NCBI GenBank assembly: GCA_016215705.1
Contig: JACRIR010000186.1
Span: 1 to 5,543 of the forward strand
Reading direction: 5' to 3'
Length of the DNA stretch: 5,543 bases
DNA from: Candidatus Poribacteria bacterium
GTDB lineage: Bacteria; Abyssobacteria; SURF-5
Below are positions 1-5,543 of the stretch, one piece after another. Every line of letters starts with the position of its first letter. Position 1 is the stretch's first letter. Under the pieces are notes generated by a model, which saw only the letters and a list, made by a program, of their open reading frames with translations, was not told where the DNA came from and did no database searches. The translations under genes and the position numbers were made by a program.

Positions 1-178
1 AACGTGGTTTCATCAAGAGGTGTTGGATGAGATTCTCGAAGAACGAATACCGCCGCGCAAGTACCGGCATATTCCCAGGGCTGTCAAACGTCGCGTGTCA
101 CCATTCCCCGCTCGGCCCAAGAATTATCAGAGCGGCAGAGCAAGCGGCAGGAAACCAAACGTAGCAATGCTTAAGTGA
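1..178 (+). CDS. C-terminal fragment of an IS4-like DDE transposase (5' end outside window)
   Basis: An open frame enters at the left edge (first full codon at base 2) and stops with TGA at 176-178, giving 58 residues. The protein runs L-D-E-I-L-E-E-R-I-P-P-R, then R-A-V-K-R-R-V-S-P-F-P-A-R-P-K, then a basic low-complexity tail. From memory, IS4-type transposases end in a similar way, with LDEI..ERLPPR followed by a P-R-V-V-K-R-K-M-S-type motif and a basic tail after the catalytic DDE domain. The catalytic residues would lie upstream of the window and cannot be checked. The gene converges on the HEAT-repeat gene, with 53 bases between the two stop codons, and a candidate element end lies in that gap. 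Whether the transposase is intact is unknown. The family assignment rests on the tail alone, so a different DDE family is possible. Confidence 0.6.
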   Translation, partial: TWFHQEVLDEILEERIPPRKYRHIPRAVKRRVSPFPARPKNYQSGRASGRKPNVAMLK

Positions 179-181
179 ACA

Positions 182-199
182 GTATTGAGGTCTGACCCC
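182..199. repeat. Candidate terminal repeat (right end) of the insertion sequence
   Basis: Directly after the transposase stop codon lies TATTGAGGTCTGACCCC with the odd-centred palindrome GGTCTGACC at 189-197. Read on the minus strand it begins GGGGTCAGACC, a type of sequence often seen at ends of transposase-bearing elements. Its position fits an element terminus: 4 bases after the transposase stop and about 32 bases before the end of the neighbouring gene. The matching left end is outside the window and no target-site duplication can be checked, so the exact boundary is not fixed. Confidence 0.4.
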
Positions 200-225: not shown

Positions 226-241
226 CGAGAATTACTTCTCG
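226..241 (-). terminator. Small hairpin across the stop codon of the HEAT-repeat gene (weak terminator candidate)
   Basis: On the minus strand CGAGAA-GTAA-TTCTCG forms a perfect 6-bp stem with a 4-base loop that holds the TAA stop (232-234). No run of T follows it (the next bases are TCTCCCTGCC), so it is not a classical intrinsic terminator. It could protect the mRNA 3' end or be chance. Confidence 0.2.
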
Positions 242-792
242 GGCAGAACACCACGCAGTTTCAGTTGATATCTTGCCCAACTCCGAACATCTCCCTCGGG
301 ATCATTCGTCATTTGTTTTAGTAGAGATATTGATTCGGTATTGCTAAGATGACCAAGATAATCAGCCACAGCCCAGCGGATTCTCTTATTTGGATGGTGC
401 GCCAATCTCATTATTGTTTTGAAGGGCTTATCACTTTTTGCAATACCCAGATCAAATATCGCTGTTGCCACTATCTCGTCATCCTTATTCTCTAGAAAAC
501 CAATAAAAAGACTTTCCGCTTCGTTCCTGTCTGATTCTATTAGGCCAAGCGCTGCTGCGTGTCTACTCTTTTCAGACGCGTCGACATTCTCATATGTGTG
601 AACCAATAACGGAATAATATGGGGCGAGATTGACTCGATTCTATCATTCGTTGCCAAAATCAACGGCCCACCAGTAGTATGATCTAATCTCCACAAATAG
701 ACGTAGTAAAGCGCAGGATATCTACCAATCCACAAAGCCGTGCCTACTGCAACAATAGCGCATAGCGCCAGTAAGATGTTGCGACTCTTCAT
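232..792 (-). CDS. Membrane-anchored HEAT-repeat protein, candidate immunity protein of the RHS toxin
   Basis: This gene encodes 186 residues. The N-terminus (MKSRN) is positive and is followed by one hydrophobic segment at about 6-22 with no convincing signal-peptidase site. I therefore expect a single anchor with the rest outside the cytoplasm. Residues about 74-180 form HEAT-like helical pairs. Their second helices show repeated patterns such as D-E-I-V-A-T-A-I-F-D-L-G (105-116), K-R-I-R-W-A-V-A-D-Y-L-G (136-147) and G-D-V-R-S-W-A-R-Y-Q-L (167-177). HEAT repeats are protein-binding scaffolds and are known among immunity proteins of polymorphic toxins. The gene starts 13 bases after the RHS stop codon, and the predicted location matches a peptidoglycan-directed toxin. 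I chose the ATG at 792 because it gives the anchor a normal N-terminus and has a spaced Shine-Dalgarno; the in-frame ATG at 897 lies inside the RHS gene and would add 35 unlikely residues. The gene is more AT-rich than the RHS core. The immunity role is inferred from context, not from a recognised family. Confidence 0.8.
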   Translation of the reverse strand: MKSRNILLALCAIVAVGTALWIGRYPALYYVYLWRLDHTTGGPLILATNDRIESISPHIIPLLVHTYENVDASEKSRHAAALGLIESDRNEAESLFIGFLENKDDEIVATAIFDLGIAKSDKPFKTIMRLAHHPNKRIRWAVADYLGHLSNTESISLLKQMTNDPEGDVRSWARYQLKLRGVLPEK

Positions 793-801
793 TTCCTTCA
801 A

Positions 802-807
802 TCCTTT
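802..807 (-). promoter_or_regulatory. Ribosome binding site of the HEAT-repeat gene, overlapping the RHS stop codon
   Basis: On the minus strand AAAGGA lies 9 bases before the ATG at 792 and overlaps the TAA stop (806-808) of the RHS gene. This spacing supports the chosen start and suggests translational coupling of toxin and downstream gene. A second purine run, GAAGGA at 794-799, is only 1 base from the ATG and is too close to be the main site. Confidence 0.6.
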
Positions 808-3800
808 AGGGCACTGGGTACTTGTCGGAGTCCGTGTACACGTAACGCCGTGCAATCGGCTCGCCTTTGAAACCCAATGCACTTGTGGTCCCTTCAATGG
901 TATTCTTCTTTAGACCAAAGTCCGCGTGCTGGTAGATCACTAGACCATTTCCAATGTGGAGCGCTGAATGGTGAGAGCCACCCTCTTTGTACCAAACAAT
1001 GATATCGCCCGGCTGAGCGTCCTCGATTGCAAAATTATCGAGCTTCGTCGCCTCGAAATACACGTCAGCCAAATCTTCAACAAGAGGATAATCGTAGCCG
1101 ATTTCAGGATGCACATCATCTGGATAATCCTTTGCATCTGGATCGCCCTCAATATGAGCAGCCGCAACAAATTCATTGCATCTATTCTTCTTCCCATACC
1201 ATCTGCCTTTCCAATCATCTTTATGGTTGTTATACTGATTTTCAGCCCAATCTACTCGATCCTGAGGAGTCAGGCCAAGTGGATCAATCCAGTTAACGGG
1301 ACCATTCCCAACATACGCATACAGATTCATCCCCCCCGCATACCCAATAGGGTCGCGAGTGATCCATCTGCGGACAACGGGTGAATAGAAGCGGTAGCCG
1401 AAGTAGGAGAGGCCTGTTTCTTGGTCATAAGGCTTGGTTGAGAATTTGAAAGGCTGGGATAAAGTGCCTATCCCGGACATGAGGTTGCCGAAGGCGTCAT
1501 AGGTGTATGCCGCCACCACTTCCTCTGAACCATTCAGCAAGGCAGTGACCTCGCCTTTTCCGTCGTAAAGATACGAATAATTCTGGCCGCCCTGCTTGAG
1601 GTCGAGCAACCCGCCAATGCCTCCGCCGAAATTCAATCCCCACGCATATTCCCTGACAACACTGTTGGCTCCATCGCGTTCTTGCAGCGGCAGGAAGCCG
1701 TCGAGGACAGGTCTGCTTTCTGACACCAAAACATCATTCTCGTATTTCTTCGTATTCGCCAAGAGGCTGTCGCCGCTATAAGAATACTCCGTCCTGTGGA
1801 CTGCGCCGCCACTGCCCGTGTACGTAAGAGTCTTTAGCCGATTCTCAGCGTCGTATTGAGCCGAAAACACGTATCCCTCCGGCGTATAGCCTTGCGTCAT
1901 GTTTCCGTCATCGTCATAGGTGAAAGCTTGCGATGGGTTAGTCGAACTCAGGAGTTGGTTGACGTTGTTGTAGTTGTACGTGATCAGTTCGTTCTGGAAC
2001 GACGTGATCGGGTTGCCGTTGGTTATGGTTTCGCTCGAACGCAGGTCAGGATGCGTTGCATCGCCGTAAGCATAGACAAACTTGTTTATAATATCCAACG
2101 GATTGGTCGAGTATAGGTTCGATATAGCCGTCAGGCGCTTCAAGGTGTCGTATTGATAGGTGGTAATACTGCCGTTGGGACGACTCATGGCTTGAACCAA
2201 CGGATTCGCGCCGGTGTAGCCATACGAATAGGTGTTTTGTCCAACCTGAATGCCTGTCAGCCTGTTGAAGTCGTCATAGTCGTAACCAATAGTTTGGCCG
2301 CCCTGCTGCTCCAACAAGTCCCTTCTGCCCAGATCGTCATAGTGATACGTCAAGGTATCGTCAGCCCATGGGCCGTCAACGCTCGTGACCCTGGAATTGG
2401 CGTCATAGGCATACTGATATGTTCCGACTCCGTCGGTTCTCCGTGTCGGGCGATTATAGTCGTCGTACTCGTATGTCACATCCGGCGTGGTATCGGAGTA
2501 ATCTATGCCCAGAAGGTTATGGTTCTGGTCGTAGGTATAGTCAATGGTTGTCCCTCTGGCATTGGTGTATTGGGCGAGAAGTCCGGCGCCATCATACGAA
2601 ACTGAGAGAGACGCATCGTCGGCGTAAGTCATTTTGACGGGGCGGTCATCCACGTCGTATTCGTAAGTTGTTGCATCGCTGTTGGGATCGATAAGCTCGA
2701 GGAGGTTCCCATTGGCGTCGTACACAAGCTTGACGGTCCCGCCGGGGCCGGTGATTTCTGTAAGGCGCTTGAGGGGATCGTAGGTGTAATTCGCGGTGCG
2801 TCCCGCACGATCGGTCAGGCTGTCCAGCATATGCGGACAGCAGTCAGAATAAGCGTAGCTTTCGAACCTTGCATCCGGCCAGGTAACCGTGGTGACGTTA
2901 TTCAGGTTGTTATACGCAAATGCGAGAGTGAGAGCCGTGGCATCGGTGTAAGTTTCGACCCGGCCTGTGGAATCATAGGTGAGGCCGGCAAGCGTCTGGT
3001 TCCCTCTTGTCACCTGATCGAGATAATGGGCAGGGCTGTAGACGTACTGAGTTACTATATTCCGTAAATCAATCGTATTCGTCTGAGTTTCTATCTGGCC
3101 GTATGTGTTGTAGGCAAAGCTTGTGGTGTTGCCAAGACGATCAGTTATTGAAGTAATATCATGGGCGCTATTGTAAGTGAGGCTTATTGTGCCGAGTCCG
3201 TTTGTGATTTCGAGCAGGTCCACGTCGTTGGGATAATACGTAATCGTCGTCGTTTTGCCTCTGGCATCGGTAATAGATGTAATCCCGTCCATAGAATTGT
3301 ACGCAACCGACCATGTGTGCCCATGCACGTCCTTGATACTGGTTCGGTCGCCGGTCACAGTGTCGTAGCCATAGTCAATGTGCCCGCCGTCCGGATAGAG
3401 AACTCTGCTGATCTCCGTCTGCCGACTCGTGCCTGTCCCGATAAAAGCGAAAGAATACATCGTCTTGGGGGTGTGTATGATGAAATTATTGATTGCATAG
3501 CTTTCCCATTCTATGTAATGCTTCGGACTCACGTACCATGCGTAGCCGGCGCCGCTGTAGTAATACTCCTCTTTTCCCCCCAAAGGATCGGTTACGGTGA
3601 TGCGATAGTTATAGTACATGAATTCCCCGGGAGGAGGATAGATGTCGCTGCTGAAGGGTGTGCCGTCCGACGGCTCCACGTAAAAGGTCCTCGTGCCGCG
3701 TTCATTCCCTATGCTTGCAAGATAGACGTCCTCATCATAGGTGAAGCTCGACCAGTAGCCTCCCATATCCGTGATTTTGGTCAAGTTGCGGTTTGCGTCA

Positions 3801-5543
3801 TACTCGAACAAAGCCGAACGGCCAAGGGGGTCGCCTGCCAAGGTGGCTTGGGTAACCAGTCCGGCAGCATTGTACGTCAGTGTCATTTGCCTGTTCATTG
3901 CATCAGTAACAGTGGTCAGATGCACGTTTGCATCATAGCCGATAGTGAGGGTTTGGCCGTGGGCATCGCTGATTTGGGTCAGGAAAGGTTGAAGAGAGGT
4001 TGTTCCTGCCGGAATGTTATAAGTGTAAACCGTGTCGTCGGGGAATCTCAGTTCAAAATGATTCTCGGCGATCTTGCTGAGTGTGTTGAACACCTGATAT
4101 GGCCGGGTATATCCTCCCGCTCCGTCCGGCGAATAGACGTCGCGTTTGCCGTCAGGCATGAATACGGTGACCTGGCCGGCGGTATCCACCACCAAATAGC
4201 TTCCGTAATTCAATTGCCACTTATTGCCGAAGGGCTCGTTCTGGGCAATGGACGATTGGGAATTATAGCTAAGCGTAAGCTGCATAGGCGGCCCTATAGG
4301 GCTGTTGTACCACAGCGGAGTGTCGGTGACGAAAAGGTTCATGTTGACCATATTCACCGACCAGGCGGGAGCTCCCATCGGGCAACCGATCAGACCAGTT
4401 GGCGCAGCGTTGCGTCCGGGATTCCCCAGATTACCCTCCCCGATTGGAACGCCGCAACAGCCGCCATAGATTTCTTCCATTTCGGTTTCGTTCAAAGCGA
4501 TTCCCGGCAAATCCACCCTATCTGAGAATACCAGGGCGATGCCGCTCCATTCCCTCGAAAACTCTTCGGGACTTTGCGAGAATCTGCGGCCCGATTGGGG
4601 GTCAAACAGATTGAGATCTTCGCCTTCAACCTTTTCCAGAATCCAGTAGTGTCCGCTATTGCCTTCGTTTCGACCGCTTATGTGCACGATTGCGGGGAGC
4701 GGCAACTTCTTGTGCCACAGGGTCGAATGGCCAGCCGCAGCGTCTGAGGGCGGGATTCTGATCGCGGCAAATTCATGCCCATATTTCGACGCGATGTCCG
4801 AAAGGTCTCGTATGCTTTGTCCTTGGAGTGTTTCGGGTTTAAGTTCCAATAAATCTCTGGCGTCGTTCTCCCTGCCCTCTTTCTCCAACACGTAAGCCAA
4901 CGCTTGAGTCCCGCATGTGAGCATTGCGCGCTCGTTCGCGGTATACCTGGATAGCCGCTGAATCCAGTGGGAGGCATATGTGCGGTCACGCCAGTCCGAA
5001 CTCTGCATCTTCAGATCACGAAACAGTTCCTGCGCACGGCCAAAGTTGTTCTGATAAACCTTCAAGACACCCAGGCGCAACGTGGCTTTGTTCCTCAAAA
5101 TTCTGGCGCCTTCGTAATCTTTGCCCTTGTTTTGCACCAGTATCCATTCGAAGCTCTCCTCGGCTTCGGAATATCTGCCATTGTACTGCGCGTCACATCC
5201 CATGTGCAAGACCGCCTCCGACGCCCAGGGACTATCCGGATATTGCTCGATATGTTTCTTGAACAGCTTTGTGGCCTTCTTGTATTCGTGCTTGTTCCAT
5301 TCCTGAATGGCCTCGCCGAAGGAAAGGTTAACTTCTTGTTCCTTCTGCTTATCGCCCATCTCATGCGTGGGGTAGAGCGGGCCTCCGAGCTGGCCGGCAG
5401 CAATGAGGTCTTCGATTGCGGGAGGTCTCGAGAGGTCTAACGGCTTTACGGAAGGGCCAACCTTGGGAACCGCGGGCGCGGCGTGTGCGGGCGCTGTCAG
5501 AACGGCTGCCAAGATTACAAGACAAAGCAATGCTGTCTTCTTC
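806..5543 (-). CDS. Secreted C39-peptidase/RHS YD-repeat polymorphic toxin with NlpC/P60-like tip (5' end just outside window)
   Basis: The open frame runs from the right edge to TAA at 806-808, 1578 full codons. Residues are numbered from the in-frame TTG at 5530. Domain order: signal peptide (to about 17), TPR-like helices (70-172), C39-like peptidase (195-338), double-glycine-type site (346-357), RHS N-terminal beta domain (about 385-510), YD repeats (515-1350) with an irregular Tyr-rich insert at about 620-715, RHS core (1371-1420), and a 154-residue tip (1421-1574) with a Cys/His hydrolase signature. RHS repeats are known to build a hollow shell that encloses a C-terminal toxin, and the core releases the toxin by self-cleavage after DPxGL. 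The tip should act on the cell wall. Unlike T6SS Rhs effectors, the N-terminus has a Sec signal instead of a PAAR domain, so the route across any outer membrane is unknown. The TTG is not the likely start: upstream codons K-K-T-A extend the signal peptide, and the last base, G at 5543 on the minus strand, could be the G of an ATG. Confidence 0.93.
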   Translation of the reverse strand, partial: KKTALLCLVILAAVLTAPAHAAPAVPKVGPSVKPLDLSRPPAIEDLIAAGQLGGPLYPTHEMGDKQKEQEVNLSFGEAIQEWNKHEYKKATKLFKKHIEQYPDSPWASEAVLHMGCDAQYNGRYSEAEESFEWILVQNKGKDYEGARILRNKATLRLGVLKVYQNNFGRAQELFRDLKMQSSDWRDRTYASHWIQRLSRYTANERAMLTCGTQALAYVLEKEGRENDARDLLELKPETLQGQSIRDLSDIASKYGHEFAAIRIPPSDAAAGHSTLWHKKLPLPAIVHISGRNEGNSGHYWILEKVEGEDLNLFDPQSGRRFSQSPEEFSREWSGIALVFSDRVDLPGIALNETEMEEIYGGCCGVPIGEGNLGNPGRNAAPTGLIGCPMGAPAWSVNMVNMNLFVTDTPLWYNSPIGPPMQLTLSYNSQSSIAQNEPFGNKWQLNYGSYLVVDTAGQVTVFMPDGKRDVYSPDGAGGYTRPYQVFNTLSKIAENHFELRFPDDTVYTYNIPAGTTSLQPFLTQISDAHGQTLTIGYDANVHLTTVTDAMNRQMTLTYNAAGLVTQATLAGDPLGRSALFEYDANRNLTKITDMGGYWSSFTYDEDVYLASIGNERGTRTFYVEPSDGTPFSSDIYPPPGEFMYYNYRITVTDPLGGKEEYYYSGAGYAWYVSPKHYIEWESYAINNFIIHTPKTMYSFAFIGTGTSRQTEISRVLYPDGGHIDYGYDTVTGDRTSIKDVHGHTWSVAYNSMDGITSITDARGKTTTITYYPNDVDLLEITNGLGTISLTYNSAHDITSITDRLGNTTSFAYNTYGQIETQTNTIDLRNIVTQYVYSPAHYLDQVTRGNQTLAGLTYDSTGRVETYTDATALTLAFAYNNLNNVTTVTWPDARFESYAYSDCCPHMLDSLTDRAGRTANYTYDPLKRLTEITGPGGTVKLVYDANGNLLELIDPNSDATTYEYDVDDRPVKMTYADDASLSVSYDGAGLLAQYTNARGTTIDYTYDQNHNLLGIDYSDTTPDVTYEYDDYNRPTRRTDGVGTYQYAYDANSRVTSVDGPWADDTLTYHYDDLGRRDLLEQQGGQTIGYDYDDFNRLTGIQVGQNTYSYGYTGANPLVQAMSRPNGSITTYQYDTLKRLTAISNLYSTNPLDIINKFVYAYGDATHPDLRSSETITNGNPITSFQNELITYNYNNVNQLLSSTNPSQAFTYDDDGNMTQGYTPEGYVFSAQYDAENRLKTLTYTGSGGAVHRTEYSYSGDSLLANTKKYENDVLVSESRPVLDGFLPLQERDGANSVVREYAWGLNFGGGIGGLLDLKQGGQNYSYLYDGKGEVTALLNGSEEVVAAYTYDAFGNLMSGIGTLSQPFKFSTKPYDQETGLSYFGYRFYSPVVRRWITRDPIGYAGGMNLYAYVGNGPVNWIDPLGLTPQDRVDWAENQYNNHKDDWKGRWYGKKNRCNEFVAAAHIEGDPDAKDYPDDVHPEIGYDYPLVEDLADVYFEATKLDNFAIEDAQPGDIIVWYKEGGSHHSALHIGNGLVIYQHADFGLKKNTIEGTTSALGFKGEPIARRYVYTDSDKYPVP
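809..1270 (-). other. Variable C-terminal toxin tip, NlpC/P60- or CHAP-like cysteine hydrolase (residues 1421-1574)
   Basis: The tip begins right after DPLGL. It has R-C-N-E-F-V at 1450-1455, which places C1451 at the start of a helix as in papain-like cell-wall hydrolases; then Q-P-G-D-I-I-V-W at 1506-1513, the NlpC/P60 and CHAP strand motif; then H-H-S-A-L-H-I-G-N-G at 1520-1529, where H1521 aligns best with the catalytic His; and Q1534-H1535 as candidates for the third polar residue. The order Cys before His is the ordinary, non-permuted one. This family cuts peptidoglycan peptides or amide bonds. Which bond is cut cannot be read here, and an amidase or transglutaminase-like variant remains possible. 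Confidence 0.7.
1271..1420 (-). other. RHS core domain with self-cleavage motif (residues 1371-1420)
   Basis: This segment carries the RHS-associated core consensus: G-L-S-Y-F-G-Y-R-F-Y-S-P, then R-W-I-T-R-D-P-I-G (D1393), N-L-Y-A-Y-V-G-N-G-P, and the closing D-P-L-G-L (D1416 to L1420). In studied Rhs effectors this region acts as an aspartyl protease and cuts just after the final leucine. Both aspartates are present, so cleavage before T1421 is expected. Confidence 0.9.
1481..3988 (-). repeat. YD (RHS) repeat array, more than 20 degenerate units (residues about 515-1350)
   Basis: The protein repeats a pattern of about 20-22 residues ending in Y-D-x-x-G/N-R/N, for example YDANRN (577), YDPLKR (918), YDANGN (938), YDDYNR (1022), YDDLGR (1064), YDDFNR (1085), YDAENR (1226) and YDAFGN (1344). 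I count more than 20 YD or YN units. Such repeats form the beta-sheet strip that spirals into the RHS shell. At DNA level the units are diverged, with only short shared words such as TCGTCATAG on the plus strand, so recent tandem expansion is not evident. A Tyr-rich, non-repeat insert at about 620-715 (PPPGEFMYYNYR, later AWYVSPKHYIEW) interrupts the array. Confidence 0.92.
4001..4378 (-). other. RHS N-terminal beta domain ahead of the repeats (residues about 385-510)
   Basis: Residues about 388-422 read S-V-N-M-V-N-M-N-L-F-V-T-D-T-P-L, followed by G-P-P-M-Q-L-T-L-S-Y-N-S. This resembles the conserved entry segment that precedes YD repeats in many large RHS proteins (similar in place to DUF6531). 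A beta-rich stretch follows, with F-G-N-K-W-Q-L-N-Y at 434-442 and the D-G motifs M-P-D-G-K-R-D-V-Y-S-P-D-G at 458-470. It probably forms the first turns or plug of the shell. No catalytic motif is visible. Confidence 0.6.
4460..4495 (-). other. Candidate double-glycine cleavage site embedded behind the C39 domain (residues 346-357)
   Basis: The residues L-N-E-T-E-M-E-E-I-Y-G-G match the double-glycine leader consensus LSxxELxxIxGG at every key place: L at -12, E at -8, M at -7, I at -4, G-G at -2/-1. The segment starts about 8 residues after the C39 domain ends, and the residue after the cut would be C358. The match is seen directly; that it is cut by the domain next to it is inferred. Confidence 0.5.
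4517..4948 (-). other. C39-like cysteine peptidase domain (residues about 195-338)
   Basis: The segment T-C-G-T-Q-A-L-A-Y-V-L (205-215) fits the C39 catalytic-cysteine helix (C206). S-G-H-Y-W-I-L-E-K (292-300) supplies H294 and N-L-F-D-P-Q-S-G (307-314) supplies D310, with the usual order and H-to-D spacing. C39 peptidases normally remove double-glycine leaders from bacteriocins at ABC exporters; here there is no transporter part. The oxyanion-hole glutamine expected six residues before the cysteine is E200, so activity could be altered or lost. Confidence 0.75.
5015..5323 (-). other. TPR-like helical repeats (residues about 70-172)
   Basis: Three helical pairs with TPR spacing are visible: H-E-Y-K-K-A-T-K-L-F-K-K (81-92) followed by Y-P-D-S-P-W-A-S-E-A (97-106), G-R-Y-S-E-A-E-E-S-F-E-W (118-129), and N-N-F-G-R-A-Q-E-L-F-R-D (161-172). 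The Y-P-x-S-x-x-A pattern is typical of TPRs in periplasmic proteins of the YbgF/BamD kind. The likely role is binding a protein partner or positioning the peptidase domain. Confidence 0.65.
5480..5543 (-). other. Sec signal peptide of the RHS protein (start codon outside window)
   Basis: Read in frame, the visible N-terminus is K-K-T-A-L-L-C-L-V-I-L-A-A-V-L-T-A-P-A-H-A, followed by A-P-A-V-P. It has a positive n-region, a hydrophobic h-region and an A-H-A signal peptidase I site, with the cut expected after residue 17. The cysteine at residue 3 is inside the h-region without a lipobox. This predicts export across the inner membrane. Confidence 0.8.

What the first reader, a model, noticed from the sequence alone, without database searches (positions are those of the whole stretch)
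232..792. Anchored HEAT-repeat protein as candidate periplasmic immunity protein
A 186-residue protein with one N-terminal membrane segment and HEAT repeats lies 13 bases behind the toxin tip. Its predicted topology puts the repeats in the compartment where the predicted toxin works. A HEAT solenoid that blocks an NlpC/P60-like toxin would be a little-described toxin-immunity pair.
Basis: inference. Interest (0 to 1): 0.6.

Follow-up and report, generated by a model that had tools for sequence, protein, structure and literature searches.

The report
Anchored HEAT-repeat putative RHS immunity protein
Right behind the probable wall-cutting tip of a secreted RHS toxin lies a small membrane-anchored helical-repeat protein that most likely protects the producer from its own toxin; the kind of pair is known, but I found no description of this combination of repeat type, tip and location.

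Summary
232-792(-) encodes 186 residues: one N-terminal membrane helix (2-24), then four HEAT helix pairs (59-179; Pfam HEAT_2 E 1.8e-14; AF2 pLDDT 80). It starts 13 nt behind an exported RHS protein whose 154-residue tip has an NlpC/P60-like fold (weak sequence hits; AF2 pTM 0.72; VIA Z about 10), with C1451 and H1521 in the catalytic places.

The immunity reading is well supported but not proven. Tip and HEAT gene form a low-GC cassette. In the window's genome and two relatives, 12 of 13 small genes behind RHS tips are exported or membrane proteins, and one tip/lipoprotein pair is co-inherited. In an automatic survey, 73 of 110 followers of RHS tips carry an N-terminal hydrophobic segment, against 22 of 101 control ORFs.

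The requested co-occurrence test is empty: HEAT follower and NlpC tip were each seen only here. Co-folding was not possible.

Imm-HEAT (with yibA beside rhsA) and Tox-NLPC/P60 are each catalogued, but not as a pair and not with an exported HEAT protein: a new variant of a known kind. Extra: the RHS protein carries a C39 peptidase directly before a double-glycine leader motif, conserved in seven RHS proteins.

The parts
232..792 (-). HEAT-repeat protein, 186 aa, putative anchored immunity protein
   Evidence: ORF; HEAT_2 E 1.8e-14; AF2 pLDDT 80
721..789 (-). N-terminal membrane helix, residues 2-24
   Evidence: hydropathy 2.6; AF2 helix 2-24
256..618 (-). four HEAT helix pairs, residues 59-179
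   Evidence: AF2 secondary structure; Pfam; Foldseek to alphaRep/HEAT proteins E 2.5e-4
793..805 (-). 13-nt gap with AGGA about 9 nt before the HEAT start codon
   Evidence: sequence; no terminator-like site found in 150-1300
809..1270 (-). RHS tip, residues 1421-1574, NlpC/P60-like; predicted catalytic C1451 (1178-1180) and H1521 (968-970)
   Evidence: AF2 pTM 0.72; Foldseek MepS E 1.7e-4; VIA Z about 10; PF00877 16.4 bits, below the cut-off of 23
806..5530 (-). RHS protein of at least 1574 aa; true start probably beyond the contig end
   Evidence: PF05593 E 3.9e-51; TIGR03696 87.5 bits, cut-off 32.5
1271..1501 (-). RHS-associated core domain at the tip border
   Evidence: TIGR03696
4460..4495 (-). 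LNETEMEEIYGG, double-glycine leader-like motif, residues 346-357
   Evidence: sequence; conserved in seven RHS proteins
4517..4918 (-). Peptidase C39 domain, residues 205-338, with C206, H294, D310
   Evidence: PF03412 E 2.2e-16; triad invariant in six sequences
5477..5530 (-). signal-peptide-like N-terminus ending APAHA
   Evidence: sequence; no dedicated predictor run

Best explanation
The HEAT protein is the cognate immunity protein of the RHS tip. The RHS protein is exported by a signal peptide and carries an NlpC/P60-type cysteine peptidase as its C-terminal tip, expected to cut peptidoglycan stem peptides of neighbouring cells. The producer's own wall is exposed to the toxin, so it makes, probably from the same transcript, a protein held in the inner membrane by one helix with its HEAT solenoid outside; the solenoid binds the tip and blocks it. 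Shown here: HEAT protein, anchor, tip fold, cassette layout, and the habit of exported genes behind RHS tips. Inferred: toxicity, wall target, binding, inhibition, and that binding covers the active site.
For: HEAT fold and single N-terminal membrane helix. NlpC/P60-like tip with C and H in place. 13-nt gap, no terminator-like site, AGGA. Tip and HEAT share low GC3 (0.47 and 0.41 against 0.63 in the RHS body), and six other family loci show the same lower GC of tip and follower. Family loci: different tips, different followers, 12 of 13 small followers exported or membrane, against 6 of 47 other genes (assigned by hand). One tip/lipoprotein pair conserved between two genera, 50% and 39% identity. 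Automatic survey: 73 of 110 followers with an N-terminal hydrophobic segment against 22 of 101 control ORFs, p 5e-11. HEAT immunity and membrane immunity to wall-acting toxins have precedents (PMC3482391).
Against: No second tip/HEAT pair exists in anything searched. Homologous ankyrin genes follow two unrelated tips in this genome. HEAT repeats are generic binding modules. No complex was modelled and no activity measured. Catalogued HEAT immunity proteins go with toxins of other kinds (Ntox34, Tox-REase-7).
Confidence: 0.62

Rival explanations
1. The HEAT protein is an adaptor or chaperone that holds or positions the RHS tip at the membrane and does not neutralise it, as the TPR lipoprotein NlpI recruits the NlpC/P60 endopeptidase MepS.
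For: NlpI-MepS shows that an anchored helical-repeat protein can bind an NlpC/P60 enzyme in the periplasm, and there binding raises activity (PMC11211486). The best fold matches of the tip are MepS chains, several from NlpI complexes.
Against: Followers change with the tip from locus to locus, as expected of tip-specific immunity; a shared adaptor should be constant. Here one could still be tip-specific.
Confidence: 0.14
2. The HEAT gene is an ordinary repeat-protein gene that landed behind the RHS gene and has no tie to the tip.
For: HEAT genes are common: 17 of 98 genomes had a match at E 0.001 or better. Repeated DNA, perhaps mobile, borders the gene (1-193). No second pair is known.
Against: 13-nt gap with ribosome-binding-like AGGA, low GC shared with the tip, and a membrane anchor that fits the local rule.
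Confidence: 0.14
3. The RHS protein is not a toxin: the tip remodels the producer's own wall or surface, and the HEAT protein regulates it.
For: NlpC/P60 domains are common housekeeping wall enzymes; no toxicity has been measured.
Against: The tip is absent from the two relatives in the same family and from every other genome searched; variable tips behind a conserved RHS core and a cassette-like GC drop point to conflict.
Confidence: 0.07

Closest known systems
Imm-HEAT immunity proteins (Zhang et al. 2012, PMC3482391), with YibA beside E. coli RhsA (PDB 1oyz; cited in PMC3150448)
   Same: HEAT repeats; encoded immediately behind an RHS gene; proposed or reported to neutralise its C-terminal tip.
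   Different: Those listed go with Ntox34 or Tox-REase-7. Here the tip is NlpC/P60-like and the HEAT protein has a membrane anchor. Similarity to the YibA model is only local (NF007244 31.5 bits, cut-off 275; 1oyz E 0.002 over 46 residues).
Tox-NLPC/P60 polymorphic toxins (PMC3482391)
   Same: NlpC/P60-type domain as the C-terminal tip of an RHS protein, predicted to degrade walls.
   Different: Listed with no immunity protein and with other export routes; here a signal peptide and a candidate immunity gene are present.
Exported or membrane immunity proteins of wall- or membrane-acting toxins (L,D-peptidase partners and Imm65 in PMC3482391; the follower of a TseH-like candidate in PMC10469887; Imm-Act1 in PMC12994826)
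   Same: Immunity outside the cytoplasm matching the toxin's place of action.
   Different: None of those described in the passages read is a HEAT solenoid.
NlpI-MepS (PMC11211486)
   Same: Membrane-anchored helical-repeat protein that binds an NlpC/P60 endopeptidase in the periplasm.
   Different: TPR, not HEAT; lipoprotein of the outer membrane; housekeeping; raises activity rather than inhibits.

Membership tests
Imm-HEAT (HEAT-repeat immunity proteins of polymorphic toxins) | protein made of HEAT repeats | tested here: met
   HEAT_2 E 1.8e-14; AF2 model and fold matches
Imm-HEAT (HEAT-repeat immunity proteins of polymorphic toxins) | encoded directly behind a polymorphic toxin gene on the same strand | tested here: met
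   13 nt behind the RHS stop
Imm-HEAT (HEAT-repeat immunity proteins of polymorphic toxins) | neutralises the cognate toxin | not testable with these tools
   needs co-expression; co-folding also not available
YibA (PRK09687) | full-length match to the YibA model | tested here: not met
   NF007244 31.5 bits, cut-off 275; only 46 residues align
NlpC/P60 (PF00877), for the tip | score above the curated cut-off | tested here: not met
   16.4 bits, cut-off 23
NlpC/P60 (PF00877), for the tip | NlpC/P60 fold with Cys at a helix start and His on a strand | tested here: met
   AF2: C31 opens helix 30-41, H101 on strand 100-107; Foldseek and VIA. The model's alignment used NlpC/P60 relatives for the C-terminal half, so this is not fully independent
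NlpC/P60 (PF00877), for the tip | third catalytic residue (usually H, N, Q or D) | tested here: inconclusive
   Y114 aligns to the H/N/Q column; Q115, H116 lie next to it
RHS polymorphic toxin | RHS/YD repeats, Rhs_assc_core domain and a variable C-terminal tip | tested here: met
   PF05593 E 3.9e-51, TIGR03696 87.5 bits, cut-off 32.5; tips differ between loci
RHS polymorphic toxin | toxic activity of the tip | not testable with these tools
   needs expression in a laboratory strain

The most novel reading that the evidence does not exclude
A membrane-anchored HEAT solenoid outside the cytoplasm inhibits an NlpC/P60 wall peptidase, giving the Tox-NLPC/P60 class an immunity partner; and the toxin belongs to a group of exported RHS proteins that free themselves from their N-terminal part by a built-in C39 peptidase acting on a double-glycine site just behind it.
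Probability: 0.4. Interest if true: 0.6.

Novelty: new variant of a known kind. Interest (0 to 1): 0.42.

Why it matters
If true, it supplies an immunity partner for a toxin class listed without one, shows HEAT repeats used for immunity outside the cytoplasm, and gives a natural template for an NlpC/P60 inhibitor. The survey also gives a testable rule: genes right behind RHS tips are exported far more often than other genes, so the follower's topology may predict where the tip acts.

Tried and rejected
Co-folding of tip and HEAT: the structure tool takes one unchanged protein, so no complex could be modelled. Close relatives of the tip: none in viral contigs, plasmids, genome contigs (about 85,000 species) or 386 whole genomes; the last gave only weak hits to ordinary NlpC/P60 proteins or chance frames. 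The pattern-based scans find close relatives only. HEAT protein in plasmids: none; in 98 genomes only generic HEAT repeats at 21-33% identity. N-terminal halves of NlpC/P60 relatives could not be aligned reliably to the tip (MAFFT misplaced the cysteine), so only C-terminal halves were used for AF2. PADLOC gave only a HEAT-ARM match (23.6 bits), judged generic. YibA orthology considered and rejected. The 12-of-13 family count was assigned by hand (the follower in L065 counted from an internal start); the automatic count is 73 of 110.

Full report
What is there. The window is an entire 5543-base contig (C118) of a 5.47-Mb draft genome with two held relatives of the same family. On the minus strand it holds an RHS gene (806-5530 as listed, start probably beyond the contig end) and, 13 bases behind its stop, the gene of the finding (232-792, 186 aa). 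Bases 1-193 recur at the start of another contig at 99% identity: repeated DNA, perhaps the end of a mobile element, which would explain the contig break.

The HEAT protein. Pfam HEAT_2 scores 54.2 bits against a cut-off of 27.7 and HEAT 24.3 against 23.5; designed HEAT proteins are the best PDB matches by sequence (E 2e-12) and fold. AF2 with 15 aligned sequences gives mean pLDDT 79.8: helix 2-24, helix 26-40, four HEAT pairs at 59-179, the last 90 residues mostly above 90. The only strong hydrophobic stretch is N-terminal, preceded by K2 and R4, with no good lipobox. One helix in, repeats out is the natural reading; no dedicated topology predictor was available.

The tip. By sequence it stays below the Pfam NLPC_P60 cut-off (16.4 of 23 bits); weak hits in the PDB and NCBIfam point mostly to NlpC/P60 for the second half. 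The AF2 model (pLDDT 73, pTM 0.72) puts C31 (C1451) at the start of a helix and H101 (H1521) on a strand. Foldseek's best matches are MepS and other NlpC/P60 peptidases (E 1.7e-4); VIA gives Z about 10 over 105-130 residues at roughly 3-4.5 A, against the 7-8 that models without a clear match typically reach. Transglutaminases score nearly as high (9.7), so the papain-like fold is more secure than the exact family. I therefore call it NlpC/P60-like.

Do they belong together? Four lines. (1) Layout: 13-nt gap, AGGA at ribosome-binding distance, no terminator-like site. (2) Composition: GC3 is 0.63 in the RHS body, 0.47 in the tip and 0.41 in the HEAT gene; at six other RHS loci of the family tip and follower are also lower in GC than the body, as expected for exchangeable toxin-immunity cassettes. 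(3) Family practice: ten RHS core matches in this genome and nine in the two relatives lead to tips of many kinds with different followers. Twelve of thirteen small followers are exported or membrane proteins, against 6 of 47 other genes (assigned by hand). The exception follows a tip with an HNH-like motif, and a SUKH gene lies nearby. A tip with an L,D-transpeptidase domain (YkuD E 1.6e-5) is followed by a multi-pass membrane protein. One pair, tip plus lipoprotein, is shared by two genera (50% and 39% identity). (4) Automatic survey: among 110 followers of at least 80 aa behind RHS tips from many families, 73 have an N-terminal hydrophobic segment, against 22 of 101 other ORFs in the same stretches (odds ratio 7, p 5e-11); outside the window's family 62 of 94. 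The HEAT gene is thus typical in place and topology, and unusual in fold: 1 HEAT follower in 114, 1 NlpC-like tip in 123.

What is missing. A caution comes from the same genome: two homologous ankyrin-repeat genes (35% identity), both with export signals, follow two unrelated tips, so a repeat protein can sit behind different tips. Binding, toxicity and protection are untested.

Mechanism. Shown: fold, anchor, cassette. Inferred: the RHS protein is exported, its tip cuts stem peptides in the wall, and the HEAT solenoid, held at the outer face of the inner membrane, binds and blocks it. That an anchored helical-repeat protein can bind an NlpC/P60 enzyme in the periplasm is known from NlpI-MepS (PMC11211486), but there binding raises activity; hence the adaptor rival at 0.14.

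Against the literature. Zhang et al. 2012 (PMC3482391) list HEAT-repeat immunity proteins (with Ntox34 and Tox-REase-7) and NlpC/P60 toxins (no immunity listed), and state that some immunity proteins of wall-acting toxins are secreted or membrane proteins, with Imm65 the only lipoprotein. Growth inhibition by the RhsA C-terminus neutralised by yibA is cited in PMC3150448, and YibA is PDB 1oyz. T6SS effectors of NlpC/P60 type have membrane immunity proteins of other kinds (PMC10469887, PMC12994826). So the kind is known; the combination is a new variant.

Unexpected. The RHS protein carries a Peptidase C39 domain (residues 205-338, E 2.2e-16) directly before LNETEMEEIYGG, a match to the double-glycine leader pattern that C39 peptidases cut (L-12, E-8, M-7, I-4, GG; the pattern is from general knowledge). 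In six aligned RHS proteins from four genomes, the window's included, the C, H and D of C39 and the M and first G of the motif are invariant; a seventh from another genome has QLALMERIRGG at the same place. One of these genomes is a Nitrospinae MAG. My literature searches found no paper combining C39 with RHS in this order. Self-cleavage in cis that frees shell and tip from the N-terminal part is the obvious hypothesis and deserves its own study.

Noticed in passing
window 4460-4918 (-); L061, L074, L075, L076, L077, L199: Exported RHS proteins with a C39 peptidase domain directly followed by a double-glycine leader-like motif (LNETEMEEIYGG in the window); triad and motif M/G conserved in seven proteins. 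Suggests cis self-cleavage.
   Followed up: partly
L042:2560-3366 and L046:7293-8345: Two homologous exported ankyrin-repeat genes (35% identity) follow two unrelated RHS tips in the window's own genome; further ankyrin matches lie on contigs C223 and C99.
   Followed up: partly
L043:6542-7792 and L065:3132-4576: RHS tip of unknown fold with a small lipoprotein behind it, conserved as a pair in two genera (tip 50%, lipoprotein 39% identity); a candidate new toxin-immunity pair without Pfam match in L043 outside the RHS repeat.
   Followed up: partly
123 RHS tips in L042-L067, L074-L105, L113-L192: Genes right behind RHS tips carry an N-terminal hydrophobic segment in 73 of 110 cases, against 22 of 101 other ORFs.
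   Followed up: yes
window 1-193: Repeat shared at 99% identity with the start of contig C139; probably a mobile-element end that broke the assembly next to the HEAT gene.
   Followed up: partly
L066:4203-5406: RHS tip with an L,D-transpeptidase (YkuD) domain followed by a multi-pass membrane protein.
   Followed up: no
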